From positions 92,878 to 156,877 of the IMG/VR virus record IMGVR_UViG_3300042453_002354: a DNA stretch of 64,000 nucleotides; one strand, written 5' to 3'. Positions 14,781 through 60,242 of the stretch are shown here, one piece after another; the stretch's first letter is position 1; the number at the start of each line of letters is the position of its first letter. The notes under the pieces were generated by a model. It was given only the letters and a program-made list of their open reading frames with translations, was not told the origin of the DNA and did no database searches. Origin of the DNA: a virus. A program made the position numbers and the translations under genes.

Positions 14781-17700
14781 TTAATTACGTTTAATTGCGG
14801 CCGCTTGTCCTTGTCCACCGCCTGATATTAATAACCAATCGGTATCGGTTCCTATTTGAGTAAATGTTAATACGCTAGTATTTTGAAGTACACCAAGTCC
14901 TAGAGGAGCCTCCATATTGTCGGTTCCGGCTGCCCATAGCGTGCCGTCCGTTTTAATGGCAAATGTAGATAAATCCCTACCTTCAATTAATCTCCAGTTA
15001 GTATCAGAACCTATTTGTATAGGAACGAGTGAATCGGTAGTTGTTCCGTTTCCAAACACTCTGTAGTTATTCCATCCCCAAGCCCATAATGTTCCATTAT
15101 TTTTAATCGCAAATGTATATTGATATCCTGCATATATTTCTTTCCAATCCGTATCGGTTCCTATTTGTATTGGAGATGTTTTTTGTATTGTTGTACCATC
15201 ACCAAGTTGGCCGTAAGCGTTATATCCCCAAGCCCAAAGAGTTCCATTATTTTTTAGTGCTATAGTGTGTGAATTTCCTGCGGAAACTTTCATCCAATTC
15301 GTATCACTTCCTATTTGAACTGGCGAATTTCTTTGAGTGGTAGTACCGTCTCCAAGACGACCATTTACGTTATATCCCCAAGCCCAGAGGGTACCATTGC
15401 TCTTGATTGCAACTGTGTGGAATTGTCCTCCCGACACACTACTCCAATTCGTATCACTTCCTATTTGAGTAGGTGAAGTTCTTCCGGTTGTATCTCCCAC
15501 TCCCAATCGACCATATAAACCAGCACCCCAAGTCCAGAGGGTACCATTGCTTTTAATTGCAAGACTATGATAGTTGCCCGCCGAGATGTAAGTCCAGTCA
15601 CTATCACTTCCTATTTGTGCAGGAGTTCCATTTGCATTATTGTTTGTGGTTGTGCCTTTTCCTAACTGTCCGTTGGTGTTTAATCCCCAAGACCATATTG
15701 TTCCGTCCAATTTTAGTGCAATCATATGCTGATAGCCTACGGAAATATCTTTCCATTTTACTCCACTACTAATCAAAGTGGGACTTGATTTGTCAGAATC
15801 TAACGCATCAGTTTGATATGAACCATTTCCAAGCACACCATAAAGTGCATCGCCCCAAGTGTATAATAAACCATTAGAACCTAATAATTCAGTTTGTCCA
15901 AAAGATTCTCCTGTACTTATACCACCACAGAAAATCGGTTCAGGAGAACTTGCGTCAAGTAATGCACCAACATGCCATCCATTTGCTTCAATTTTGTTCC
16001 ATGTTAAATATGTTGTAATTTTTTCTGGTGTTGTAACAAATTCAGTAAAACTTGATGTGATTGGTAGTCGGTAGTTACTACCCCAAGCCCATAAAGAGCC
16101 ATCAACTTTTAATGCAAATGAATATGCTGCATTATTAAATATAACGTAAGCACCTGCAACATCATCCCAGTCTGTTTCTGTGCCCACCTGAATTGGTTCA
16201 AGAACTGTGCTAGTAATACTACCTATTCCTAATTCGCCAGTATATTGAGTACCCCAAGACCAAAGTGTTCCGTTAGTTTTAACTCCTAATGTATGCCAAC
16301 CACCCGATGCGACAGTTTTCCAATCCGTATCAGTGCCCACTTGAGTTGGTGTTGTTCTATCTACGGTCGTTCCATCACCAAGCTGACCGGAGGCATTGTG
16401 ACCCCAAGCCCACAGCGTTCCGTCTACTTTTATTGCAAACGATCTGAGGTGGATTGCGAATATAGATGACCAATTCGAGTCTGTTCCGATTTGTACAGGA
16501 GTTAATCTATCTACATTTGTACCATCGCCTAATTGACCTTCGGCATTTCTACCCCAAGCCCATAAAGTTCCATCAGATTTCAATCCAAGGAAATGATTAA
16601 CGCCCGCATCTATATCAGTCCAGATATTTGAATCAAATAACGTAGGATTTGGCGATGGGTTAAGTGCGCCGTTGTAAAATTGTCCGTTATACGTATTTGA
16701 CCATAGGGTTCCATCATTTCTAATTGATATTATAGTTGCACCATCGTTCCACGGTGCGCCACTATTCGTTATTGATGTTTTTATCCAAGCCGATCCTAAG
16801 ACATCCATTGAGCCGTCAAATCTTCCAGCCCAATTTGTCTGATCTGATTTAATGGCGGAAAACATTCTACCAAAAAGATTAAAATCGGACCAAGTGTTGT
16901 CACGTTGCTCTACCGGAACTCCATACGACACATCACTTCTTCCTGTTACTTTTTTTATAAAATTATCCCTATGCCATCCCCATAACGTATTTGTCGGAGT
17001 TAAATTTGTCTCTTCGGGTGTTGCAATAGTATTACCAAATGCTTCTCCTGTACTTATACCATTACAAAAAATAGGTTTAGGTGATGTTACATCTAAAATT
17101 CCACCACTTTGAAATGCGTGTGTTTGTATTCTATTCCATTTTAAATACGTTGTCAGTTTTTGTGGTGTCGTGCTAATATCTGTACCAGAAGAATCGCTCA
17201 ATAGTCTAGATCCCCATCCCCAACTCCACAATGACTTGTCTGATTTTATTGCATATGAATATCCACCACCGTAAATAAATCCTGTAGCAATTTCCGTCCA
17301 ATCATCATCGGTGTCAATTTGAATTGGTTGAGCCTTTGAAATTGTAGTACCATCACCTAATTGACCTGTGGTGTTATCTCCCCATGCCCACAGAGTTCCG
17401 TTCGATTTTATAGCTAAATGGTGTCCACCTGAAGTTGAGACATTAATGCAATTAAAACCTTGTTGTTCGTTTAGATAGTCAAGAGTTGTCCAAATTACAT
17501 TATTAGATTCGTCTGTTATTTTTATTGCTATTCCACTCGGATTGTCGGGATTCGGGTGTGGTTCATTGATATAAGAAGCTACAAGTACATGTGTTCCGGC
17601 GGTTAAAGTGATAGATATGTTTGAACTTGAACCGAAATTATTTGAAGAAGTCCAAGTCTGTCCTGCTATGCTATAAGATCCGAGATTATCGGCAGCATAT

Positions 17701-20399
17701 TGAAAGTTATATGTTCCACTGATCGGTATATGTATGGAAGTTGTAAATTCAAATGTTCCTACAGTATTAATATTTCCATAATTAATGGACCAATCATTCA
17801 TGAATTGACCCCACGCATAGTGAGATGACTTAAACCAAGTAGGATCGATTAAAACCTTTGTTATGGTCGTTCCGATTTTCCAAAGTGTTCCATCATTTTT
17901 AATTGCAAATGACGCATATCCACCTGCCGCTATAAAAGACCAATCTGTATCAGTGCCCACTTGAATCGGGGTTATTGAATCTACAGTTGTTCCATCGCCA
18001 AGCTGACCTTCAACGTTTCGTCCCCACGACCACAAGGTTCCATCAGACTTTAGTGCTAAAAAGTGGTTAATTCCGCTGTCAAGACTTACCCAATCAGTAT
18101 CGGCGTTCAATAAGGTTGGTGCTGTGTGTGTAGAAGATTCGTACCAAAGATAGTGTGGCCAAGTCCAGAGCGTACCGTCATCTTTAATTCCGGCATTTCC
18201 GTAATTTCCTCCCCCAACGTACTGAACGCCTGTAATTTTGACAAAATTTGAATCTCTATTAAATGTTAAACCGGCAAATATATTATCTTCCCATAGTTGT
18301 CCATCTTGCTTGAGTGCCATCAACAATTCGCCACTACCAAATCCTCCTTTTAGTATAACATCTGAGTATGGTATTAAATTGTCTTCATTTATTGGAGTCG
18401 ATTGTAATTTTGGTAAAGTTCCATTTCCAACGTATCCCCAAGTGTACAAAGTTTCTTCGGGAGGCAAAACTATCGGAGATAGACCAAGATCTATATTGAC
18501 ACTACCAAACTGTTCATTAGAATTTATAGATGAAGTTAAGATCGATGTCGCACCACTCAATATTGAAGGAGTTCCAAATATTTCTTGTGTGTGAATGTTG
18601 ATAGTAAATAACTGTTTTGATCCGCTAGGAAAGGGTGATGCAGTATCGCATAAAGGATCTTTTAAAATTGGTTCTGGTTGTATCTTGGTTCTTAACCAAG
18701 GTTTCATCCAAAAATCACCAACAATGATATCAAAGAAATCTTTTATTTGATAATTTGCAAAATCGGTTTTCCAATAATTTGAATTACCCGAATATAACAA
18801 TCTATCTTCATCATTTCCACCATTTGGTTTATATGTAAATTTAAATCTATCGATGCTGTTTAATGATGCACCATTTCTGTATCTGACTAGACTTTCTAGT
18901 TGATATTCATCGAGTTCAGGTTGTATGTTAGGATCGACTTCTAATTTTAATTCTACATCTAACGGCTTAAATGAAATATCATTATACTCAACTTCGTTGT
19001 GCCAAGTAATCTGTAAATTATTTTGTACTTTCGTCTCACTTGAAATAAAGTTTTCACTTAAAAAGTTTCCAAATAATTTTAAACCCGATGGATGAATTAA
19101 ATCTTTAACAAAAGATTCATAAAAGTCAAAAGATTCACTAACCTTGATTACATAAGAAAATTGTTGATAGTAAAAACTATCTTGTATAAATTTTGCATCA
19201 CTTAATTTTCCATCATCATTTAAGAAATATCCTTTATATTTTATTATTGTACCAACTTGAGGAATTATGTGTAATTGATTATCACCATCCGGTTCGTAAA
19301 CTAATATATTGTTGTAAGTTCTTTCACCAATTTTTACTTCACTAAATGCTGTTGGTGGTATTTTAAATCCTGGAGAAACAATATCAACTTTTGTTACATT
19401 GCCTAAAGTATTTACGGTAGATACAGTGGCCTTAAAATCTTGAATATTAAAGTTTTGAAAATTACTGACTATCTCAGTTCCTATGGAATAGTTTGAACCT
19501 TTGTCGAATAATTTAAAACCAGTTACGCAAGTTACAGGATTTGCGAAAACGTTTGGAGCCTCATCGGAGTATAGAGTCTCGCCAGGATAGAATTCTCCTG
19601 TTATTGAACTTCTATTTAAAAATAACTCGTATACTACATTTAAACCTATCTCAAGTTTTATGGCATATTCAACAAATGCGGAACTTTGACTATTTTGCCC
19701 AATTATTTTTTTATTGATGAATGCAAATGGAGTATCTGCCGAATTGGTTGGCATCTCAACTCTAACAGAATAGTTTTGAATCCATTTTCCATCAGATGGT
19801 CGGAGCATATCCACACGAGGATAATAGAAATCAATTTCAGCACCTAATATTAATCTAAACAAATATTTGTATGCTCTTTCTGTTCCTTTTGCACCATAAA
19901 ATTGCACAATGTTTTTTATGGCATTTTGTATCTTAACTCTATTGTTTGGATTTGCAGGATCTACGTATAATTCTTTAGGAAATCTAGACATCACTTCTTT
20001 TTGAAGTGAATGTAAAAATGGGTCTTCAGTTGTGTCAAGATCTTGCAATCTAGGTAGATCTTTACTTAATCCTAAAGCATTGCCTCTGATTTCCATCCAT
20101 TCGTAATATTTTTCTAGAAAATCTATAAATCTAGGAAAATCAGATTGAACATATTGTGGCAATCTATGCTTAACTATTTTTGCTATGCTTTGAATTTGTC
20201 TCGGTTGTTTTATGACGGTAGGAGATCCGTGAACTTCTCCGGAAGCAATTGAAGAAGGAACTAAATTTTGTAAATTAACCTTTGGTGAGCTAACGATAGA
20301 AGCTGTCGAAATTGAGGATGGTTTAACGACACCAACCATCACATGGTTTGATGATGAAAATCCAGAACTTATGCCAGTACATGTTATAGATTGTGACAT
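14781..20399 (-). CDS. gp7-position baseplate wedge protein fused to RCC1 propellers and a PA14-like domain
   Basis: 1872 residues. Residues about 65-200 (QSIAKIVKHRLPQYVQSDFP, FLEKYYEWME, FYGAKGTERAYKYLFRLILG) match the N-terminal wedge module found in this position in marine T4-like phages. Residues about 600-1872 consist of more than 20 RCC1-type repeats with the signature LWAWGxNxxGQLGDGTT, grouped in three blocks (about 650-1110, 1138-1490, 1510-1872). A PA14/GLEYA-like beta domain interrupts the first block at about 875-985 (ISGTYNFQYAADNLGSYSI). A short IxTGExFG motif precedes each block. The start overlaps the gp6 stop (TAATG). RCC1 propellers usually mediate binding, so surface recognition is inferred. 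T4 gp7 has no such domain. Confidence 0.85.
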   Translation of the reverse strand: MSQSITCTGISSGFSSSNHVMVGVVKPSSISTASIVSSPKVNLQNLVPSSIASGEVHGSPTVIKQPRQIQSIAKIVKHRLPQYVQSDFPRFIDFLEKYYEWMEIRGNALGLSKDLPRLQDLDTTEDPFLHSLQKEVMSRFPKELYVDPANPNNRVKIQNAIKNIVQFYGAKGTERAYKYLFRLILGAEIDFYYPRVDMLRPSDGKWIQNYSVRVEMPTNSADTPFAFINKKIIGQNSQSSAFVEYAIKLEIGLNVVYELFLNRSSITGEFYPGETLYSDEAPNVFANPVTCVTGFKLFDKGSNYSIGTEIVSNFQNFNIQDFKATVSTVNTLGNVTKVDIVSPGFKIPPTAFSEVKIGERTYNNILVYEPDGDNQLHIIPQVGTIIKYKGYFLNDDGKLSDAKFIQDSFYYQQFSYVIKVSESFDFYESFVKDLIHPSGLKLFGNFLSENFISSETKVQNNLQITWHNEVEYNDISFKPLDVELKLEVDPNIQPELDEYQLESLVRYRNGASLNSIDRFKFTYKPNGGNDEDRLLYSGNSNYWKTDFANYQIKDFFDIIVGDFWMKPWLRTKIQPEPILKDPLCDTASPFPSGSKQLFTINIHTQEIFGTPSILSGATSILTSSINSNEQFGSVNIDLGLSPIVLPPEETLYTWGYVGNGTLPKLQSTPINEDNLIPYSDVILKGGFGSGELLMALKQDGQLWEDNIFAGLTFNRDSNFVKITGVQYVGGGNYGNAGIKDDGTLWTWPHYLWYESSTHTAPTLLNADTDWVSLDSGINHFLALKSDGTLWSWGRNVEGQLGDGTTVDSITPIQVGTDTDWSFIAAGGYASFAIKNDGTLWKIGTTITKVLIDPTWFKSSHYAWGQFMNDWSINYGNINTVGTFEFTTSIHIPISGTYNFQYAADNLGSYSIAGQTWTSSNNFGSSSNISITLTAGTHVLVASYINEPHPNPDNPSGIAIKITDESNNVIWTTLDYLNEQQGFNCINVSTSGGHHLAIKSNGTLWAWGDNTTGQLGDGTTISKAQPIQIDTDDDWTEIATGFIYGGGYSYAIKSDKSLWSWGWGSRLLSDSSGTDISTTPQKLTTYLKWNRIQTHAFQSGGILDVTSPKPIFCNGISTGEAFGNTIATPEETNLTPTNTLWGWHRDNFIKKVTGRSDVSYGVPVEQRDNTWSDFNLFGRMFSAIKSDQTNWAGRFDGSMDVLGSAWIKTSITNSGAPWNDGATIISIRNDGTLWSNTYNGQFYNGALNPSPNPTLFDSNIWTDIDAGVNHFLGLKSDGTLWAWGRNAEGQLGDGTNVDRLTPVQIGTDSNWSSIFAIHLRSFAIKVDGTLWAWGHNASGQLGDGTTVDRTTPTQVGTDTDWKTVASGGWHTLGVKTNGTLWSWGTQYTGELGIGSITSTVLEPIQVGTETDWDDVAGAYVIFNNAAYSFALKVDGSLWAWGSNYRLPITSSFTEFVTTPEKITTYLTWNKIEANGWHVGALLDASSPEPIFCGGISTGESFGQTELLGSNGLLYTWGDALYGVLGNGSYQTDALDSDKSSPTLISSGVKWKDISVGYQHMIALKLDGTIWSWGLNTNGQLGKGTTTNNNANGTPAQIGSDSDWTYISAGNYHSLAIKSNGTLWTWGAGLYGRLGVGDTTGRTSPTQIGSDTNWSSVSGGQFHTVAIKSNGTLWAWGYNVNGRLGDGTTTQRNSPVQIGSDTNWMKVSAGNSHTIALKNNGTLWAWGYNAYGQLGDGTTIQKTSPIQIGTDTDWKEIYAGYQYTFAIKNNGTLWAWGWNNYRVFGNGTTTDSLVPIQIGSDTNWRLIEGRDLSTFAIKTDGTLWAAGTDNMEAPLGLGVLQNTSVLTFTQIGTDTDWLLISGGGQGQAAAIKRN

Positions 20400-33293: not shown

Positions 33294-34064
33294 TCAAGAA
33301 TTATTTTTAATAGTTTCAAGAATCCAATTTCTACCGGCGGGTACACTAGCATAAACGCCAGGATAAACACTACTTGCACACTCAAATCCCCACGATGTAA
33401 TACCGTAGAGAACCCTTCGGTTCAATGAGGTAATTGGTCCACCACTGTCACCATTACAAGTATCACCACCATCCAGCACTTCATTAGACGAAGACAATTT
33501 GGCCCCACAAATCATTGTTTTGTCGTCAAATTGATCACCCAAAACAGTACTGCATTGACTCTGTTGCCAAATTGGAAACTTTAACTCTTTCAATTGAGAT
33601 GATATTGCACCCGATTCGGTAATACCCCAACCAAAAGCTCTATGACTTCCCACGACATTCTTTGTTGCCAGTTTTGGATACAATCTTGATTTTAATTTTC
33701 TCTTTAATTTAAAGAGTGCCCAGTCCCGTTTATATGTAAAACCACTCCAATTATCAAAAAATACAGATTCTACTCCGGATCTTGCCTTTGGATGAGAAAG
33801 ACTCTTACCACCAACACCTACCTTGAAGAAAGATAGGTCATAATTCCTTGTCAATTCAGCACAGTGTGCCGCCGTCAGCACCCAACCAGGTCTGATGAGC
33901 GTTCCACCACAAAAGAATTCACCATCGAGGTATAGTGCAGTCATATATGGTACAGCACGATTGACCGTTATACCATTAATAATTCTTTCAGTAGTTTGTG
34001 CGTGTGACTTTACACACACAAACAAAGATAATGCCAATAGTCCAATTTTTGTTTTAATTTTCAT
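33294..34064 (-). CDS. Secreted trypsin-like serine protease (S1 family)
   Basis: 256 residues. A signal peptide is at 1-22 (IGLLALSLFVCVKSHAQ). The activation-type junction RIINGITV gives the S1 N terminus. The catalytic triad is intact: His in LTAAHC (about 64), Asp in KRDWALFKL (about 114), Ser in GDTCNGDSGGP (about 205). Paired Cys residues (FFCGGTL/AAHC, the C..S region) fit chymotrypsin disulphides. S1 proteases are unusual in tailed phages; some marine vibriophages encode them. Its export implies action in the periplasm or outside the cell, perhaps on host envelope proteins or during release. No late box was found upstream. Confidence 0.9.
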   Translation of the reverse strand: MKIKTKIGLLALSLFVCVKSHAQTTERIINGITVNRAVPYMTALYLDGEFFCGGTLIRPGWVLTAAHCAELTRNYDLSFFKVGVGGKSLSHPKARSGVESVFFDNWSGFTYKRDWALFKLKRKLKSRLYPKLATKNVVGSHRAFGWGITESGAISSQLKELKFPIWQQSQCSTVLGDQFDDKTMICGAKLSSSNEVLDGGDTCNGDSGGPITSLNRRVLYGITSWGFECASSVYPGVYASVPAGRNWILETIKNNS

Positions 34065-34176: not shown

Positions 34177-35064
34177 TTAAAACAGTTCAATTTCAGTGTC
34201 TTCTTTTTTCAATTCTTCTATATCGGTTTGTCCATCTAAGATTTTTATCTCCTCTAGATTATACATTTTATCCCACAGTGTGTAAAAGGTTTCTTGGGTA
34301 GACTTATCGAATCGACTTAAACATAGTTTTACTGAATCATTAATATTTCCTATAATGTTATTGGTTTGTAATATATGAACCAAACGACGAGTGGTTACTA
34401 CTTCATTCGATCCACCATCATCAAATGTATCACGAATTGATTCCGACCACGAGAGTAGAGTATTGACAATTTTTTCATCGCCTCTAGTCATTATCTTGGT
34501 AAGAATCTTTTTCTCATTCGCTTTACTTGGATATTTTTGTTCCAGTGTGATTGCAAACCTTTCCAGAAATGCTTCATTCAAAAAGTTAGTACCGATAAAC
34601 TTACCAGTTTCATCACCTTGACCTTTCGTATTGGCGGTAGCGATTATGGTAAAGCCAGGTGCTGGCGTTACGACCTCATTTATTTTCTTTATGTACAACG
34701 AATTACCTTCAAGTACAGGTTGTAGACACATAATTCTGTTAGATGCCAAATCAACCTCGTCTAGCAAAAGAACAGCACCTTCCCGCATTGCTTCAACGAC
34801 CGGACCATAATGCCATACGGTGTCGCCATCCTTTAATCTAAAACCACCGATCAAATCATCTTCATCCGTTTCAATGGTTACGTTTATTCTGATCAATTTT
34901 CTTTTCAGATCGGCGCATACTTGTTCTACCATCATAGTTTTACCGTTACCGGACAAACCAGTAATAAAGACAGGAAAGAAATTTTGACTACCAACAATCT
35001 GTGAAAGTAGATTATGATGACCCCATTTTACATAGTTGTTATTTTTGGCCGGTACAATTGACAT
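34177..35064 (-). CDS. MoxR/CobS-type AAA+ ATPase
   Basis: From ATG 35064 (MSIVPAKNNNYVKWGHHNLL) with GGAG upstream it has 295 residues. Walker A GLSGNGKT is at about 38, the DDLIGGFRLKDGDTVWHYGP block characteristic of CobS/MoxR at about 65, Walker B LLLDEVDLA at about 100, sensor 1 IATANTKGQGD, and an arginine-finger region NEAFLERF. MoxR ATPases act as chaperones with VWA partners. CobS is also used as a name in cyanophages without evidence for cobalamin synthesis. The VWA gene lies directly upstream in the same operon. A remodelling or maturation role is inferred. Confidence 0.85.
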   Translation of the reverse strand: MSIVPAKNNNYVKWGHHNLLSQIVGSQNFFPVFITGLSGNGKTMMVEQVCADLKRKLIRINVTIETDEDDLIGGFRLKDGDTVWHYGPVVEAMREGAVLLLDEVDLASNRIMCLQPVLEGNSLYIKKINEVVTPAPGFTIIATANTKGQGDETGKFIGTNFLNEAFLERFAITLEQKYPSKANEKKILTKIMTRGDEKIVNTLLSWSESIRDTFDDGGSNEVVTTRRLVHILQTNNIIGNINDSVKLCLSRFDKSTQETFYTLWDKMYNLEEIKILDGQTDIEELKKEDTEIELF

Positions 35065-35115
35065 AACAATGATCTCCAAGATAAACAATTTTTCTATAAT
35101 TAAATTATCACACAA

Positions 35116-36381
35116 TCAAACTAACAGATCAACAATTTTTTCGGAAATAATTTTTAAAGATTTTGTCTTGACTAAACTTTTGGTCATATCTCTGCCAATT
35201 TTGTTTATTTCTTTTTTTACATTTTCGACTTGTTTTGGTCTTTTGACATAGATATCTTTATCCAAATCATCATCCAGTCCTTCATCATCCAAAGATTCTA
35301 CGTCATTCCAAAAATCACTTCGTTGTATTATATCAAAACATCCGAATACACTTTTATTAAGACAAATAAAAGTATTGAAAGATTGTGGCAAATTATTAAC
35401 TTTAACTTTGATATCATCTGAGGAGAATCTATCACTGTGAATATAGAATTCGTGGCACTTCAATGATTGACCAAAGTGTTTTCTTAATGCAGAAACTAAC
35501 GTATGATATTGAGCCGGTTTCCAATCGATCTGATGATACATCATATTGTCGTTTCTATTTCTAATTAATCCATTTTTCACAAGTGTTTCATAATTAGACA
35601 AAACATCATAAAAGTAACTTTTGTTTTTATACTTTATGTTTAAAGATGTTTGTCCGCTAAGTGAGTCTCTGGAAAATAATTGGTTTCCGTTTTCAATTGT
35701 ATCCGTTGCATCGCCATCGGTTATGACGATTAAGTGAGTTATATCCTTTTTGTGTTTTTGTTGAAAATTATCTACTACCTTAAAACATTCAAACATTGAA
35801 TTATTCAGTGGAGTACCAGAGAGTCCGTATCCGAATGAGTGTGCATAACTCGAATCGGCGGCGGCTCTAGCAAGATAATAAAATGCTCTAGATTGCATTT
35901 GAAAATCTAGCTTCGATGATGAAGATGATAAAAAATTATATAATCTGCATTTGTCCGGAGGTGCATTAAATGGATAATGTTCAGACTCATAACTATGTAC
36001 TCTAAAATCACTAAACCCATAAACATCAAACGGCAAACCGGCCTTTTTACAAAACTTGGCAAACAATAAAATTTGTAGTATGCAAGGCAAATATTCAGAA
36101 CCCATACTACCAGACATATCAAACAATACGACAAAACCGTAACTGTCGCCTTTATAATCGATCTGTTTTCTAATAAAAATATCTTCCGATAGTTTATGTT
36201 TGGATAATGATTGAGTGTCTAGTATACCAGTTTTTTTGAATTGCGTTTTGTGATATTCTCTGGTTTTTTGTTTTCTTAGAAACAATTGCGTCATATGACT
36301 CGAAATCATTTCTAATGCACGATCCATTTTTTCATAATCAGATTTATATCTTGCTGCATTATCTCTGGTATAGTAATTCAT
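35116..36381 (-). CDS. VWA-domain (CobT-like) protein with MIDAS
   Basis: From ATG 36381 (MNYYTRDNAARYKSDYEKMD) with RBS AAGG it has 421 residues. A VWA domain spans about 80-340: MIDAS DMSGSMGS at about 88, Thr in the SGTPLNNS loop, and TDGDATDT at about 222. The C terminus is acidic then basic (DDEGLDDDLDKDIYV...). CobT-like and NorD-like VWA proteins pair with MoxR ATPases to act on a third protein. It lies between the HEVGH protein (5 nt away) and the AAA+ gene. Confidence 0.85.
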   Translation of the reverse strand: MNYYTRDNAARYKSDYEKMDRALEMISSHMTQLFLRKQKTREYHKTQFKKTGILDTQSLSKHKLSEDIFIRKQIDYKGDSYGFVVLFDMSGSMGSEYLPCILQILLFAKFCKKAGLPFDVYGFSDFRVHSYESEHYPFNAPPDKCRLYNFLSSSSSKLDFQMQSRAFYYLARAAADSSYAHSFGYGLSGTPLNNSMFECFKVVDNFQQKHKKDITHLIVITDGDATDTIENGNQLFSRDSLSGQTSLNIKYKNKSYFYDVLSNYETLVKNGLIRNRNDNMMYHQIDWKPAQYHTLVSALRKHFGQSLKCHEFYIHSDRFSSDDIKVKVNNLPQSFNTFICLNKSVFGCFDIIQRSDFWNDVESLDDEGLDDDLDKDIYVKRPKQVENVKKEINKIGRDMTKSLVKTKSLKIISEKIVDLLV

Positions 36382-36386
36382 TTTTA

Positions 36387-37319
36387 TCAACCTTCATAAT
36401 ATGATAAAATTCGATGTAGCACATCAGCAGTGAATAATTTGCTATTACTAATGATATCGCAATTACTAATTTCAATGCAAGTGATATTTTTAGATAATGC
36501 TTCTTGTAAACTTTCATTCATTTTCTGTTCAAAGGTGTTTTGGATTTCAGAAAAGAATTCGCCAGAATCATTCTTCGTTGGTTTCTGTGGTTGAATCTGT
36601 TCGGATTGTTGTTGTGTTTCATTTTGTTCATTTTGACCACCATCAGAAGTCTCAGTGCCAGAAACTTCTACTTTTTGCATTTGGGATTCATTCTCTTGGT
36701 CTTCTTTGTTTTCTTGATCTTTTTCTTTTTCTCTCTTTAGATACTCTAGAATTTCTCTCGATACTGTTATAACACTTTCAAAGTTATAACAAGTTATGCA
36801 TTTCTTAACCAATGAAAGTTCTTCGGTGTTAAAGACTATTCTACCATAGGATTCATAATTGGCTTTTACCTTGAGGTATAATACCAATCTATCCAAAAAT
36901 GTTTTGTAATTAATTTTGTGTAATGAGTGTGATATTTTTTCTTCGTTACCAAAGAAATCATTTTCCAACAACCATTTAATTCCGTTTTTATAATCAGAAA
37001 CCAAGCCAGGATATTTTTGTTTTATCTTTATATCGATTCGATAGTCTTCTACTATATTGATGATTGGTTTTAATTCTTTACCCTCTTCACTCACAAATAT
37101 ATCATCATACGGAGTAAACAATGCGTGGCCAACTTCGTGTCCTATAACGAAATGATATAATTGTTCTTGCTTGAAGTCCCAGAATGGTAAATATAAAGTT
37201 CTGTTCTTTATATCAAAGGCTGCGGTAGTCAAACTCTGATTAAGAACAACGCCGATATTTTCACTAGCAAACAGTTTTGCCAGTAGCTCATAATTCTGTA
37301 TTGCATTGTTTGATTTCAT
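36387..37319 (-). CDS. HEVGH metalloprotease-like partner of the AAA+/VWA pair
   Basis: 310 residues. A zinc-protease-type motif HEVGH sits at about 59-63 (FVIGHEVGHALFTPYDD), with a possible third ligand in NIVEDYRID at about 90. Residues 200-260 are Gln/Glu-rich and disordered, followed by a helical tail. Start ATG 37319 follows a short gap after a 73-residue gene. The pairing of an HExxH domain with a separate VWA protein resembles a split CobT-like or M-type peptidase arrangement. Activity is inferred from the motif only. Confidence 0.7.
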   Translation of the reverse strand: MKSNNAIQNYELLAKLFASENIGVVLNQSLTTAAFDIKNRTLYLPFWDFKQEQLYHFVIGHEVGHALFTPYDDIFVSEEGKELKPIINIVEDYRIDIKIKQKYPGLVSDYKNGIKWLLENDFFGNEEKISHSLHKINYKTFLDRLVLYLKVKANYESYGRIVFNTEELSLVKKCITCYNFESVITVSREILEYLKREKEKDQENKEDQENESQMQKVEVSGTETSDGGQNEQNETQQQSEQIQPQKPTKNDSGEFFSEIQNTFEQKMNESLQEALSKNITCIEISNCDIISNSKLFTADVLHRILSYYEG

Positions 37320-38892: not shown

Positions 38893-39171
38893 CTATTCAA
38901 AATAATAGTCATTTTCCGGTCTAATATAGTATTCACTATTCAGATTAACAACTTCTTTCCTTTGTATCATGGATAAAAAATTGTATTTTGTTATTCTTCT
39001 ATTATTAGTATAGATCTCTGCCACACAATTATCAAGAAAAAACTCCCAGTCTTTTACATTTTTGTGCACAAAAGGTTTATTCGATTTTGGATAATCGCCA
39101 AAAACTCGTATAACAAACGATAAGCTATTGGAATTATTTGATACTATTATTTCAGTTGTAACCATTTTCAT
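38893..39171 (-). CDS. Hypothetical protein (92 aa)
   Basis: MKMVTTEIIVSNNSNSLSFV..., a beta strand-rich small protein ending RPENDYYFE. It starts 5 nt after the aminotransferase stop, so it is part of the same transcript. No family is recognised. Confidence 0.5.
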   Translation of the reverse strand: MKMVTTEIIVSNNSNSLSFVIRVFGDYPKSNKPFVHKNVKDWEFFLDNCVAEIYTNNRRITKYNFLSMIQRKEVVNLNSEYYIRPENDYYFE

Positions 39172-39176
39172 TCGTT

Positions 39177-40448
39177 TTACAAACTTTTGGACAATATCTC
39201 AATAAGTAAATCAACCTCTTCCTTTGAGAATGTCAAAGATGGTCTAAGTCTTACTGAATTAAGACCACATCCTAGCAGAAATAATCCGTTTTGTCTACAT
39301 CTTTTTATTAGTGCATCACGTTCTCTTAAATGGTCAAAGGCACACATTAAACCTTTTCCTCTAGGATTTGAAACACCAAGATCAGTCAACTTCTTCAATA
39401 GATAGTCACCAACAACTTTGGCATTTTCAACTAGATTATCTTCTTTTATTATTTCTAGGTATCTCTGAGAGCGAACCATATCGACTAAATTTCCACCCCA
39501 AGTGGAATTGATTCTAGATTTTTCTACAAAAACATTATCTTTAACTTCCTGTACTCTAGGTCCGCTTAGTATACCACACACTTGCATTTTTTTGCCAAAA
39601 CAGATAATATCTGGTACAACCAAATAATGCTGATGGGCCCAAGTTTTACCAGTTAATCCTAAACCAGTTTGAACCTCATCGTATATCAATAGCATATCGA
39701 ATTTATCTGCCAATGCACGAAGATCCTCGTGAAAATTTCCACTGAAATGATTGTCGCCACCTTCGCCTTGTATTGGTTCAATTATGATTGCTGCACAAGT
39801 ATCCTTTAATTTTTCTATTGTTTCCAGTGCAACGTTATAAAAATTACAATCAAGACTCAATTGCTGTTCTGGTGAATTAGACTGGTGTAATACTGGTGCT
39901 TCAAGTCTAGGCCAATCTGGAAATTTTGGAAATAGTTCATACTTTCTAGGATCATTTGTATTAGTTAAGCTGAGGCTGTAGCCAGAGCGACCATGAAATG
40001 AGTTTTTAAAATGCACGATCTTCAATTCGTTTGGATCGACATTCACTCCCTTTTCTTTAAGTCTCCTATATTTCCAGTCAAAGGCAACCTTCAATGCGTT
40101 CTCTACCGCTAGTGTGCCTCCGGCGATGAAAAAGGAATGAGTAAGATATGGTGGCACTGCCACATCAAAAAATGTTTCAACAAATTCCACAAACTCTTCG
40201 GTGAGAATATCAGAGTTTGACGGATTTGTCCTAGCACACCTCAATAGTTTTTCACTAAATCGTTCATCGAACATTTTAGGATGATTGTGTCCTATGGGGT
40301 TGCTGGCAATAAAGCTAAATGCATCAAGATATTCTTTGCCTGTGTTCTTATCTACAAGAAAATTGCCGTGGCTCTTGTCAATATCAAAGACAGTATCAAA
40401 ATGATCTAACAGTATAAACTTTGAAATTCTTTCGTGAAGGTCGGACAT
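39177..40448 (-). CDS. lat: Class III PLP aminotransferase, L-lysine 6-transaminase-like
   Basis: 423 residues, full length for the family. Seen: the GTLAVENALKVAFDWKYRR block used to recognise Lat, SFHGRSGYSLSLTNT, the PLP-contacting DEVQTGLG (about 245), the Schiff-base lysine in CFGKKMQVCG (about 286), and NSTWGGNLVDMVRS. L-lysine 6-transaminase converts lysine and 2-oxoglutarate to 2-aminoadipate semialdehyde and glutamate. The family's usual setting is bacterial lysine catabolism or beta-lactam synthesis, so a phage copy is very unusual. RBS AGAGG lies 6 nt before ATG. Substrate is inferred from motif similarity and could be another omega-amino acid. Confidence 0.85.
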   Translation of the reverse strand: MSDLHERISKFILLDHFDTVFDIDKSHGNFLVDKNTGKEYLDAFSFIASNPIGHNHPKMFDERFSEKLLRCARTNPSNSDILTEEFVEFVETFFDVAVPPYLTHSFFIAGGTLAVENALKVAFDWKYRRLKEKGVNVDPNELKIVHFKNSFHGRSGYSLSLTNTNDPRKYELFPKFPDWPRLEAPVLHQSNSPEQQLSLDCNFYNVALETIEKLKDTCAAIIIEPIQGEGGDNHFSGNFHEDLRALADKFDMLLIYDEVQTGLGLTGKTWAHQHYLVVPDIICFGKKMQVCGILSGPRVQEVKDNVFVEKSRINSTWGGNLVDMVRSQRYLEIIKEDNLVENAKVVGDYLLKKLTDLGVSNPRGKGLMCAFDHLRERDALIKRCRQNGLFLLGCGLNSVRLRPSLTFSKEEVDLLIEILSKSL

Positions 40449-40450
40449 GA

Positions 40451-40648
40451 TTACCTCTTTCTAAGTAACAGAACAACTAACAACAAAGACACCGCAAAAC
40501 TAACACTAATACCTGAATACAACTTGACTCTATTATAGCTAGGCACAAGTTCATAGACAGCGTGACCTGCAATAACAGATCCCACACAAAGAAGAAAACA
40601 AAAAAACAGATTTAAAAAAAACTTCACAAAAGACAATAACTTTGACAT
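40451..40648 (-). CDS. Small two-helix membrane protein
   Basis: 65 residues with two hydrophobic segments (FLNLFFCFLLCVGSVIAGHA and VSFAVSLLLVVLLL) and a basic C terminus RKR. RBS GAGG precedes ATG. It stops 2 nt before the aminotransferase ATG. It has the size and topology of a small holin, but nothing else supports that. Confidence 0.55.
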   Translation of the reverse strand: MSKLLSFVKFFLNLFFCFLLCVGSVIAGHAVYELVPSYNRVKLYSGISVSFAVSLLLVVLLLRKR

Positions 40649-40672: not shown

Positions 40673-41110
40673 TCATTTCTTTGAAGAACGAAATCCCGAA
40701 ACAAAGGCCCACTTCACCCAATCACTAAGCATTCTGGTTCTATCTACAGAATCTTCTAGTTTGCAAGTGGAGCGAAACCATTCAGATCTGGTAGAGTACT
40801 CACCATATAAATCATTAAACCACTCGTCAAATTTCTGTAAGGCGAGTTTTTCTTCATCAATCGATTGTTCCTCCTTACTATCATTACTATCACGTTCCTC
40901 ATTCATAGACTCCCACCTCTCTTCACACTGTTGCTCTATGTTCACGCCCAGCATCAAACTGGCATAAGAAATTAAATCATCAGGTGTATGAATTTGAAGT
41001 CCATAGTTAGGATACACATCAATCAGAATCTCTCTAACTCGACTCTTAGTGCATCCAAATTGAACCCTTAGCAATTGAATCCATTTACAATCAACATAAG
41101 AAAGTACCAT
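40673..41110 (-). CDS. Hypothetical protein, template of the duplicated fragment
   Basis: From ATG 41110 (MVLSYVDCKWIQLLRVQFGC) it has 145 residues, overlapping the dam TGA as TGATG. A helical N-terminal part (possibly HTH-like, KSRVREILIDVYPNYGLQIH) is followed by an acidic linker (NEERDSNDSKEEQSIDEEKL) and a Trp-rich C terminus. Two stretches of this gene recur in the pseudogene at 41611-41709. No family is recognised. Confidence 0.55.
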   Translation of the reverse strand: MVLSYVDCKWIQLLRVQFGCTKSRVREILIDVYPNYGLQIHTPDDLISYASLMLGVNIEQQCEERWESMNEERDSNDSKEEQSIDEEKLALQKFDEWFNDLYGEYSTRSEWFRSTCKLEDSVDRTRMLSDWVKWAFVSGFRSSKK

Positions 41111-41610
41111 CACACACCCTCAGACAAAGATTTCATTCTCTTCAAATCAAACACGGAAACTCTTGAGGTACCGTTTTCCGGCCCAAAGACGACAAGCATA
41201 AGCGGTTGAGGAAGACCATGTGGGGCATCTCCGAATTTGGGTCGACCGCATATAAACAAAACCTCTTCGGCTTTCATGCAATAGTCCCGAAACCATGTGG
41301 TATTTGTGCGGGCAGGTATAAGCATAACCACCCGACAACGCCCCGCATTTGACTCGTTATAAGCCTTTACAATCCAATCTTTAAGTTTACTCTTTCGACA
41401 ACCGTAAGGCGGATTTAACCAACATGAGCCATGCCATTCTTGCCTTAACCCATCTGCTTCTTCATCAAAAAACTTTTCACATTTGGTGTTTTCGGCATCT
41501 GCCGCAAGGTCTGTGGCAAAATGGTATCGAGCGTCCAATGCCCTAAAAAGGTCATTGGGAGTTGTCCACTCCTGCTTTGCGGAATCGAATTTGTTTTTGA
41601 ATACTGCCAT
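41110..41610 (-). CDS. dam: Phage DNA N6-adenine methyltransferase (Dam family)
   Basis: From ATG 41610 (MAVFKNKFDSAKQEWTTPND) it has 166 residues. Family signatures: QEWTTPNDLFRALDARYHFATD-type N terminus, the catalytic WLNPPYG (about 66), and PARTNTTWFRDYC. Phage Dam proteins of this class methylate adenine, often in GATC. Its RBS (AGGTGGGAG) lies inside a duplicated piece of the neighbouring gene, and its last codons (KSLSEGV) match the end of the upstream gene (KSLSRSA). It looks like an inserted cassette. Confidence 0.88.
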   Translation of the reverse strand: MAVFKNKFDSAKQEWTTPNDLFRALDARYHFATDLAADAENTKCEKFFDEEADGLRQEWHGSCWLNPPYGCRKSKLKDWIVKAYNESNAGRCRVVMLIPARTNTTWFRDYCMKAEEVLFICGRPKFGDAPHGLPQPLMLVVFGPENGTSRVSVFDLKRMKSLSEGV

Positions 41611-41709
41611 ACTCCCACCTCTCTTCACACTGTTGCTCTATGTTCACGCCCAGCATCAAACTGGCATAAGAAATTAAATCCATTTACAATCAACATAAGA
41701 AAGTACCAT
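41611..41709 (-). pseudogene. Decayed partial copy of the 40673-41110 gene
   Basis: About 100 bp repeats two separate stretches of the neighbouring gene: its start (MVLSYVDCKW) and its internal part (LISYASLMLGVNIEQQCEER). The roughly 100-bp segment between them is deleted and the fusion hits a stop after 11 codons. The junction GGATTTAATT combines GGATTCAATT with TGATTTAATT, so deletion between short direct repeats is likely. The fragment now supplies the dam RBS. Confidence 0.8.
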
Positions 41710-58982: not shown

Positions 58983-60242
58983 CTATAAAACTTTGGAAAA
59001 ATGTATTCCCACCTGTTCGGCGAGATATACAGGAACGGCATTACCGATCTGAGTATATTTTGGCAACTCACGATCAAATATTCCTTGATGAGGATTTCCC
59101 GCCCTTCTCAAACCACCAGTGGTTCTACTTCCGGCAAACTGATACCAGTCTGGGAATCCTTGAAGTCTAGCCCATTCTCTTACCGTTAAAATTCGTGCTT
59201 GCGAAAAATGAACGTAGTCATCGGGTAGAGAAGTTACAGTTATTGATGGACCACTTTTATTCCAACGAGCGGGAAGAAGTCGTTGAGCGAATTTCTTAGT
59301 TTTAAGATGTGGTGGTATCTCTCCATTGTGTTTCAACATATGAGTGAATTTTTCTATCACCTTATCCGAATGATTAGAATACTCTTGTTCAGTTAGTACA
59401 GCACCCTCTGGAGCAACTTTTCCATCTATACCAGTACGAATAAGTTTCTGATATTCGTTCATTGCCTCATTAAGATACTTATCTGTGCTACTACCGTATT
59501 GAAAATTAGGATCAATTAGATCACCAAGTAGATCAATTAAGTCAGGAGCACCATAAGTAGGTTTAGGTAAAAAACCATCGGCCACTTTGCTGTCAATCTT
59601 TTCCCAAATCGATGTATCAACATCATCCCTTACACCAACAACTAGTACTCTTGGTCGATTCTGTGGAGCACCGTAATCTTTAGACAGAACCAAGGCGTGA
59701 CTAACACGATAGCACTTAATTGAATTAAAAGAATGTAAAACATCTTCAAATATTTCACCTTTAGTTCCGTTTGGTGTCCACTTAGCTGAGAGTAGACCTT
59801 TTACATTTTCAAAAAGAAAAATCTTTGGTTTAAGTTTATTAACAACCCAAGCCATATCTTGATATAAATGATTAGATGGTAGTTGTTCTTTATGTACGGA
59901 ATATGAACGTCTATGTCCAATACCGGAGAATCCTTGACATGGCGGACCTCCTACCACCAAATCCAGATCTCCATCCTCAATAGAAATCTTAAATTCTCTT
60001 TTAAGAGAATTCATGATTTTCTTAATTACTCCTTCTTTCGTAACTATATTTTTAATGTCATATTCGTGGAATTCAGGATTAGTCAATCTTGGTTCTATTA
60101 TTTGCCGATTCATCAAATAACTACTCATAGCATTTTTGTTAAGTTCGTTTACGAATACAGGATGAAATCCTGCTTTCTCCAAACCTAATGAAAGACCACC
60201 ACAACCAGCAAATAGATCGACTGCAAATTTTTTAGATTTCAT
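58983..60242 (-). CDS. dcm: DNA cytosine-5 methyltransferase
   Basis: 419 residues. Motif I DLFAGCGGLSLGLEKAGF (9-26), motif IV GGPPCQGFSGIGH (about 100), ENVKG (motif VI, about 144), the QNRPRVLVVGVR block (motif VIII, about 190), and motif X near the C terminus (TQIGNAVPVYLAEQVG). All catalytic motifs are intact. The target-recognition region (about 210-340) is unassigned. A sigma70-type promoter with direct repeats lies upstream. It probably protects phage DNA from host restriction, and no cognate endonuclease is proved. Confidence 0.93.
   Translation of the reverse strand: MKSKKFAVDLFAGCGGLSLGLEKAGFHPVFVNELNKNAMSSYLMNRQIIEPRLTNPEFHEYDIKNIVTKEGVIKKIMNSLKREFKISIEDGDLDLVVGGPPCQGFSGIGHRRSYSVHKEQLPSNHLYQDMAWVVNKLKPKIFLFENVKGLLSAKWTPNGTKGEIFEDVLHSFNSIKCYRVSHALVLSKDYGAPQNRPRVLVVGVRDDVDTSIWEKIDSKVADGFLPKPTYGAPDLIDLLGDLIDPNFQYGSSTDKYLNEAMNEYQKLIRTGIDGKVAPEGAVLTEQEYSNHSDKVIEKFTHMLKHNGEIPPHLKTKKFAQRLLPARWNKSGPSITVTSLPDDYVHFSQARILTVREWARLQGFPDWYQFAGSRTTGGLRRAGNPHQGIFDRELPKYTQIGNAVPVYLAEQVGIHFSKVL

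What the first reader, a model, noticed from the sequence alone, without database searches (positions are those of the whole stretch)
39177..40448. Phage-borne L-lysine 6-transaminase-like enzyme
The protein is full length and keeps the PLP lysine and family motifs. Lat enzymes normally serve host lysine catabolism. In a phage it could tune amino-acid pools, feed a base-modification pathway or deplete lysine. It has no other lysine-pathway gene beside it.
Basis: partly seen in the sequence, partly recalled or inferred. Interest (0 to 1): 0.75.

Follow-up and report, generated by a model that had tools for sequence, protein, structure and literature searches.

The report
Phage-borne lysine 6-transaminase (Lat)
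A T4-like phage carries an intact copy of a bacterial lysine-degrading enzyme, and the same gene recurs in dozens of other uncultured phages, some next to further amino-acid-breakdown enzymes, so some phages seem to rewire their host's amino-acid metabolism in a way the papers I could search do not describe.

Summary
The gene is real. The ORF at 39177-40448 (-) encodes a full-length (423 aa) L-lysine 6-transaminase family protein in a 157 kb T4-like phage record. It passes the curated cut-off of TIGR03251, its AlphaFold model matches M. tuberculosis Lat best (TM 0.94), it keeps the lysine-specific active-site residues and is under purifying selection.

Beyond the finding: 43 non-redundant viral Lats form two well-supported phage lineages, T4-like phages (with the window) and huge phages up to 595 kb; one old acquisition is likely, two are possible. 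Twelve of 30 such contigs carry a terminase. The window phage has no second pathway gene. But in 15 marine contigs Lat follows a phage-specific aldehyde dehydrogenase and an overlapping arginine-dihydrolase-like gene, and in ten others a glutamate dehydrogenase lies 1.4-3.3 kb away. This points to amino-acid catabolism (lysine + 2-oxoglutarate to aminoadipate semialdehyde + glutamate), not DNA base modification, for which no gene was seen. Activity and benefit to the phage are inferred. It is a known enzyme in a new phage role: a new auxiliary metabolic gene.

The parts
39177..40448 (-). lat: L-lysine 6-transaminase family ORF, 423 aa, PLP lysine K286
   Evidence: TIGR03251 equivalog 528.1 bits over cut-off 520.8; best solved relative 2cin; model TM 0.94 to 2cin; active-site residues conserved
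40453..40460 (-). ribosome-binding site AAAGAGGT before the lat start codon
   Evidence: sequence read directly
39591..39593 (-). codon of the PLP-binding lysine K286 (Mtb K300)
   Evidence: alignment to Mtb Lat; position computed from the ORF start
40451..40648 (-). 65-aa membrane-protein-like ORF whose stop lies 2 bases upstream of the lat start; same transcription unit likely, no known function
   Evidence: conserved only in near strains L001, L002; no PHROG match
38893..39171 (-). 92-aa ORF starting 5 bases after lat; same transcription unit likely, no known function
   Evidence: conserved only in near strains L001, L002; no PHROG match

Best explanation
The gene is a functional phage auxiliary metabolic gene encoding L-lysine 6-transaminase. 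The PLP enzyme takes the epsilon-amino group of free L-lysine (carboxylate held by R154), carries it on the cofactor bound at K286, and gives it to 2-oxoglutarate (bound by R400 once the E229 switch opens). This yields glutamate and 2-aminoadipate 6-semialdehyde, which cyclises to piperideine-6-carboxylate. During infection this would divert host lysine into glutamate, nitrogen and carbon usable by the phage. In related phages the following steps also look phage-borne: an aldehyde dehydrogenase (semialdehyde to 2-aminoadipate) and a glutamate dehydrogenase (regenerating 2-oxoglutarate with release of ammonium and NAD(P)H). In the window's phage only the first step is encoded and the host would have to finish. 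Shown: family, intact active site, fold, conservation and selection, phage residence, co-occurrence with the other genes. Inferred: catalysis on lysine, expression, direction of flux, benefit to the phage.
For: Curated equivalog cut-off passed. All Mtb Lat active-site residues checked (R170, E243, D271, Q274, K300, N328, T330, R422) are conserved in the window and nearly all viral Lats, and R170, E243 and N328 are absent from the distant viral outgroup; their roles in lysine and 2-oxoglutarate binding are described in PMC9780415. Best fold match is Mtb Lat, TM 0.94. dN/dS 0.05-0.12. Two viral lineages, 31-43 sequences. ALDH next to Lat in 15 viral contigs and GDH in 10; ALDH elsewhere in three further Lat phages; the phage ALDHs are a mutually related family, 54-79% identical.
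Against: No activity data. The window's own record has no ALDH, GDH or second aminotransferase, so a complete pathway is not shown there. The other viral Lats tested score 455-520 bits, just below the equivalog cut-off of 520.8. The ALDHs match no curated subfamily at its cut-off; the best name is ketoglutarate-semialdehyde dehydrogenase, not piperideine-6-carboxylate dehydrogenase. No host is known.
Confidence: 0.6

Rival explanations
1. The phage enzymes now act mainly on ornithine. In the marine operon the arginine-dihydrolase/DDAH-like enzyme makes ornithine, 'Lat' makes glutamate semialdehyde, ALDH makes glutamate and GDH makes 2-oxoglutarate: arginine rather than lysine catabolism.
For: The gene just before Lat (overlapping it) in 15 contigs matches arginine dihydrolase (233.7 bits) and Mtb-type DDAH (202.6) models, though below both cut-offs. 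ALDH also matches glutamate-semialdehyde dehydrogenase models at about the level of the others.
Against: TIGR03251 remains by far the best family for all viral Lats tested, and no ornithine aminotransferase model is listed among the matches at E 1e-60 or better. The residues binding lysine in Mtb Lat are kept. The window phage and its clade have no arginine-dihydrolase-like gene in the regions examined.
Confidence: 0.12
2. The enzyme serves to deplete free lysine or to make piperideine-6-carboxylate (for example toward pipecolate, a compatible solute), weakening host wall or protein synthesis, excluding other phages or easing osmotic stress; feeding the phage is not its point.
For: The window phage encodes only the first step. 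No downstream enzyme is needed for depletion.
Against: Related phages add ALDH or GDH, which suits use of the product rather than mere depletion. No proC-like reductase was noticed near Lat, but none was searched for with a model.
Confidence: 0.17
3. The enzyme feeds a DNA base hypermodification pathway.
For: T4-like and other phages are known for hypermodified bases, and amino acids or polyamines are attached in some of them (general knowledge).
Against: No hydroxymethylase, base kinase or transferase seen by eye in the record; none recurs beside the 44 viral Lat genes. The record has ThyX-like and methyltransferase-like genes only. Not every ORF was scanned with models.
Confidence: 0.03
4. 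A recent, incidental capture of a host gene with no lasting role.
For: Lat is common in some bacteria: 204 of 396 sampled genomes of one phylum have a strong match.
Against: The closest sampled cellular Lat is only 56% identical. The viral lineages stand apart from all sampled cellular Lats. dN/dS is about 0.1 even between near strains.
Confidence: 0.04

Closest known systems
L-lysine 6-transaminase Lat of M. tuberculosis (Rv3290c, PDB 2cin)
   Same: Same family, full length, same active-site residues, TM 0.94, about 46-47% identity in the structural alignment
   Different: Phage-borne; belongs to separate viral lineages in the tree; activity not measured
Lat of uncultured huge phage LR756511.1 (595 kb)
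   Same: Phage-borne Lat, 49% identical to the window; the record also has terminase and ALDH
   Different: Belongs to the other viral Lat lineage; far larger genome; record is unannotated
Cellular Lat of Balneolota (for example Fodinibius salsisoli, L075)
   Same: Same family, 51-56% identical to the window
   Different: Chromosomal; not the sister of the window lineage with any support
Auxiliary metabolic genes of T4-like phages
   Same: Host-type metabolic enzyme kept under purifying selection on a lytic-type phage genome
   Different: Amino-acid catabolism by Lat not found in the papers searched; PHROGs has only a distant aminotransferase family, phrog_2736 at 74 bits

Membership tests
L-lysine 6-transaminase (TIGR03251) | Curated equivalog score cut-off (520.8 bits) | tested here: met
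   528.1 bits for the window protein; other viral Lats 455-520, just below
L-lysine 6-transaminase (TIGR03251) | PLP lysine and the lysine / Glu-switch residues of Mtb Lat | tested here: met
   K286, R154, E229, R400, N314, T316, D257, Q260 (roles in PMC9780415)
L-lysine 6-transaminase (TIGR03251) | Fold closest to Lat rather than other class III aminotransferases | tested here: met
   2jjf/2cin/2jje/2jjh rank first, TM 0.94; GABA transaminase 0.87
L-lysine 6-transaminase (TIGR03251) | Catalysis: lysine + 2-oxoglutarate to aminoadipate semialdehyde + glutamate | not testable with these tools
   needs an enzyme assay
GABA, ornithine or acetylornithine transaminases | Curated cut-off of any such family | tested here: not met
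   GABAtrns_euk 231.5 of 567, argD 201.4 of 410, Orn_aminotrans 149.3 of 378
Phage auxiliary metabolic gene | Lies on a phage genome, not in host or contaminant DNA | tested here: met
   same record as T4-like structural genes; same locus in two other viral contigs
Phage auxiliary metabolic gene | Kept by selection | tested here: met
   dN/dS 0.05-0.12; conserved in two viral lineages
Phage auxiliary metabolic gene | Alters host metabolism to the phage's benefit | not testable with these tools
   needs expression and metabolite data
Phage DNA hypermodification system | Modified-pyrimidine synthase plus base kinase or transferase genes in the phage | tested here: inconclusive
   none seen by eye in the ORF lists of the 157 kb record; not scanned gene by gene with models

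The most novel reading that the evidence does not exclude
Two old phage lineages carry their own Lat, and the huge-phage lineage has assembled a phage-specific catabolic module (aldehyde dehydrogenase, arginine-dihydrolase-like enzyme, Lat, in some also glutamate dehydrogenase) that breaks down basic amino acids during infection: an undescribed phage metabolic pathway, of which the window's T4-like phages keep the first enzyme.
Probability: 0.45. Interest if true: 0.65.

Novelty: new member of a known kind. Interest (0 to 1): 0.48.

Why it matters
Phages are known to take over nucleotide, photosynthetic and sulfur metabolism. A conserved phage-specific enzyme for lysine breakdown, in some phages with the likely following steps, would add amino-acid catabolism as a recurrent target in T4-like and huge phages of uncultured hosts. 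It is directly testable with purified enzymes.

Tried and rejected
(1) Other class III families: rejected by curated cut-offs, residues and fold. (2) Recent host capture: no cellular Lat closer than 56%, and none nests inside the viral lineages after adding sampled genomes of four phyla. (3) A firm claim of a single viral origin: quick trees gave SH-aLRT 96-97, but the careful 70-row tree gave only 85/41, with 90% of bootstrap trees; so 'one or two acquisitions'. (4) ALDH, GDH or class I/II aminotransferase elsewhere in the window's own record: none. (5) Viral hits at 30-34% (L063-L068, L070, L071): a different aminotransferase without the R170, E243 and N328 equivalents, used only as outgroup. 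(6) T4-type late promoter TATAAATA before lat: not found, and the motif is not enriched in the window. (7) Phage-collection hits at 25-31%: records with host-type aminotransferases (argD, astC, GABA transaminase), probably host DNA in phage records. (8) Literature searches for phage Lat or lysine catabolism: nothing relevant.

Full report
Observation. The ORF at 39177-40448 (-) is intact, 423 aa, with a good ribosome-binding site. It belongs to the L-lysine 6-transaminase family: TIGR03251 equivalog at 528.1 bits against a cut-off of 520.8, with the runner-up (eukaryotic GABA transaminase) at 231.5 against 567. The best solved relative is M. tuberculosis Lat. An AlphaFold model built from 30 viral sequences (pLDDT 85, pTM 0.88) matches the Mtb Lat structures first, TM 0.94, ahead of GABA transaminase at 0.87.

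Active site. Mapping Mtb Lat onto the phage protein gives R170->R154, E243->E229, D271->D257, Q274->Q260, K300->K286, N328->N314, T330->T316, R422->R400. These are described as binding lysine (R170), acting as the Glu switch (E243) over R422, holding PLP (K300, D271, T330) and contacting C5 substrates (N328) (PMC9780415). They are invariant or nearly so in all viral Lat groups. More distant viral aminotransferases found in the same scan lack R170, E243 and N328, which marks the edge of the family.

Setting. The window is the last 64 kb of a 156,877-base virus record. Its gp6 baseplate protein is 32-36% identical to those of Pelagibacter, Methylophilales, Caulobacter and cyanobacterial T4-like phages. 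Reading the ORFs of the rest of the record by eye gives a T4-like set, with structural, replication and recombination genes and ribonucleotide-reductase-like, ThyX-like and dUTPase-like genes (not scanned with models). Two other viral contigs hold the same region at about 98%. In the nearest relatives (L015-L018, Lat 68-70% identical) the gene sits at a different place, near T4-like tail genes, while those neighbouring proteins are only about 24-56% identical to the window phage's. Lat is thus better conserved than its phage background, by selection or by transfer between phages. dN/dS is 0.10 between the window and L013 and 0.05-0.12 in other pairs.

Distribution. A profile scan of IMG/VR found 60 viral loci, most of them Lat at 43-98%. 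Among 30 of the records 12 carry a terminase large subunit above cut-off, including records of 341, 343, 381, 533 and 595 kb. In trees with 50-62 cellular Lats from several bacterial and archaeal phyla all 43 viral Lats fall together, SH-aLRT 96-97. A slower 70-row tree keeps the split in 90% of bootstrap trees but with weak branch support (85/41), while the two viral sublineages (T4-like with the window; huge phages) are each 100/100. Cellular sampling was limited to the best matches and four phyla, so a cellular relative inside the viral group cannot be excluded.

Neighbours in other phages. In 15 marine-lineage viral contigs an aldehyde dehydrogenase, an arginine-dihydrolase/DDAH-like gene and Lat follow one another, the last two overlapping, mostly with a nucleotide-sugar-dehydrogenase gene after Lat and in four contigs a saccharopine-dehydrogenase-fold gene. 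'Marine' rests on my recollection of the metagenome numbers and was not checked. In ten others a glutamate dehydrogenase lies 1.4-3.3 kb downstream. Aldehyde dehydrogenases also lie away from Lat in the 595 kb phage and in two of the glutamate-dehydrogenase phages. All these phage ALDHs are 54-79% identical to each other but only about 27-38% to ALDHs next to bacterial Lat. Two near relatives of the window phage (L016, L017) carry a class I aminotransferase about 6 kb from Lat. The window's own record has none of these.

Mechanism. Established chemistry of Lat is L-lysine + 2-oxoglutarate -> 2-aminoadipate 6-semialdehyde (cyclising to piperideine-6-carboxylate) + glutamate. The recurrent partners could oxidise the semialdehyde and regenerate 2-oxoglutarate with release of ammonium and reducing power. 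The simplest reading is amino-acid catabolism during infection. The main alternative for the lineage with the arginine-dihydrolase-like gene is arginine -> ornithine -> glutamate semialdehyde -> glutamate, with a transaminase that uses ornithine; the lysine-pocket residues argue against it but do not exclude it, and the ALDH subfamily cannot be named. In the window's phage Lat acts alone as far as the sequence shows, so lysine depletion stays possible. Nothing points to DNA base modification.

Known or new. Searches of open full-text papers for phage plus Lat or lysine catabolism gave nothing relevant; subscription journals and preprints are not covered. PHROGs has only a distant aminotransferase family, and in the phage collection no record other than LR756511.1 has a match above 31% identity (places shown). 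I therefore file it as a known enzyme in a new phage role: a new auxiliary metabolic gene, not a new kind of system.

Noticed in passing
33294-34064 (-): Trypsin-family serine protease with a signal-peptide-like N-terminus; the residue six before the catalytic Ser is Asp, as in Lys/Arg-specific trypsins. Unrelated proteases also lie near Lat in other phages: an HtrA-like one within 1.3-7 kb in about ten huge-phage contigs and a metalloprotease-like ORF just downstream in L003 and L004. Chance or a link between proteolysis and amino-acid catabolism is not known.
   Followed up: partly
34177-37319 (-): A MoxR/CobS-like AAA ATPase (phrog_249) followed by a CobT/vWA-like protein split in two overlapping ORFs that cover the two halves of phrog_459.
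   Followed up: partly
14781-20399 (-): 1872-aa protein: T4 gp-like N-terminus fused to a long run of RCC1-like repeats (GTLWAWG...GQLGDGTT), several more copies of which occur in tail-fibre-like ORFs of the record.
   Followed up: no
41110-41628 (-); 58983-60242 (-): A Dam-like N6-adenine methyltransferase (absent from the otherwise about 97% identical contig L001) and a C5-cytosine-methyltransferase-like ORF.
   Followed up: no
L016 17754-18938; L017 12460-13635: Class I aminotransferase (NF005744, over cut-off) about 6 kb downstream of Lat in two relatives of the window phage; could act on 2-aminoadipate.
   Followed up: partly
L012 7440-9185 (same record as L059): Lat reading frame of a phage contig fused in frame behind about 190 residues resembling a phage HNH/homing-endonuclease-type protein, with the Lat start missing.
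   Followed up: no
L211 6801-8905; L212 1172-3316: Lat-bearing huge phages also carry a translation initiation factor IF-3 (over cut-off) next to an indolepyruvate/phenylpyruvate-decarboxylase-like enzyme and the ALDH.
   Followed up: partly
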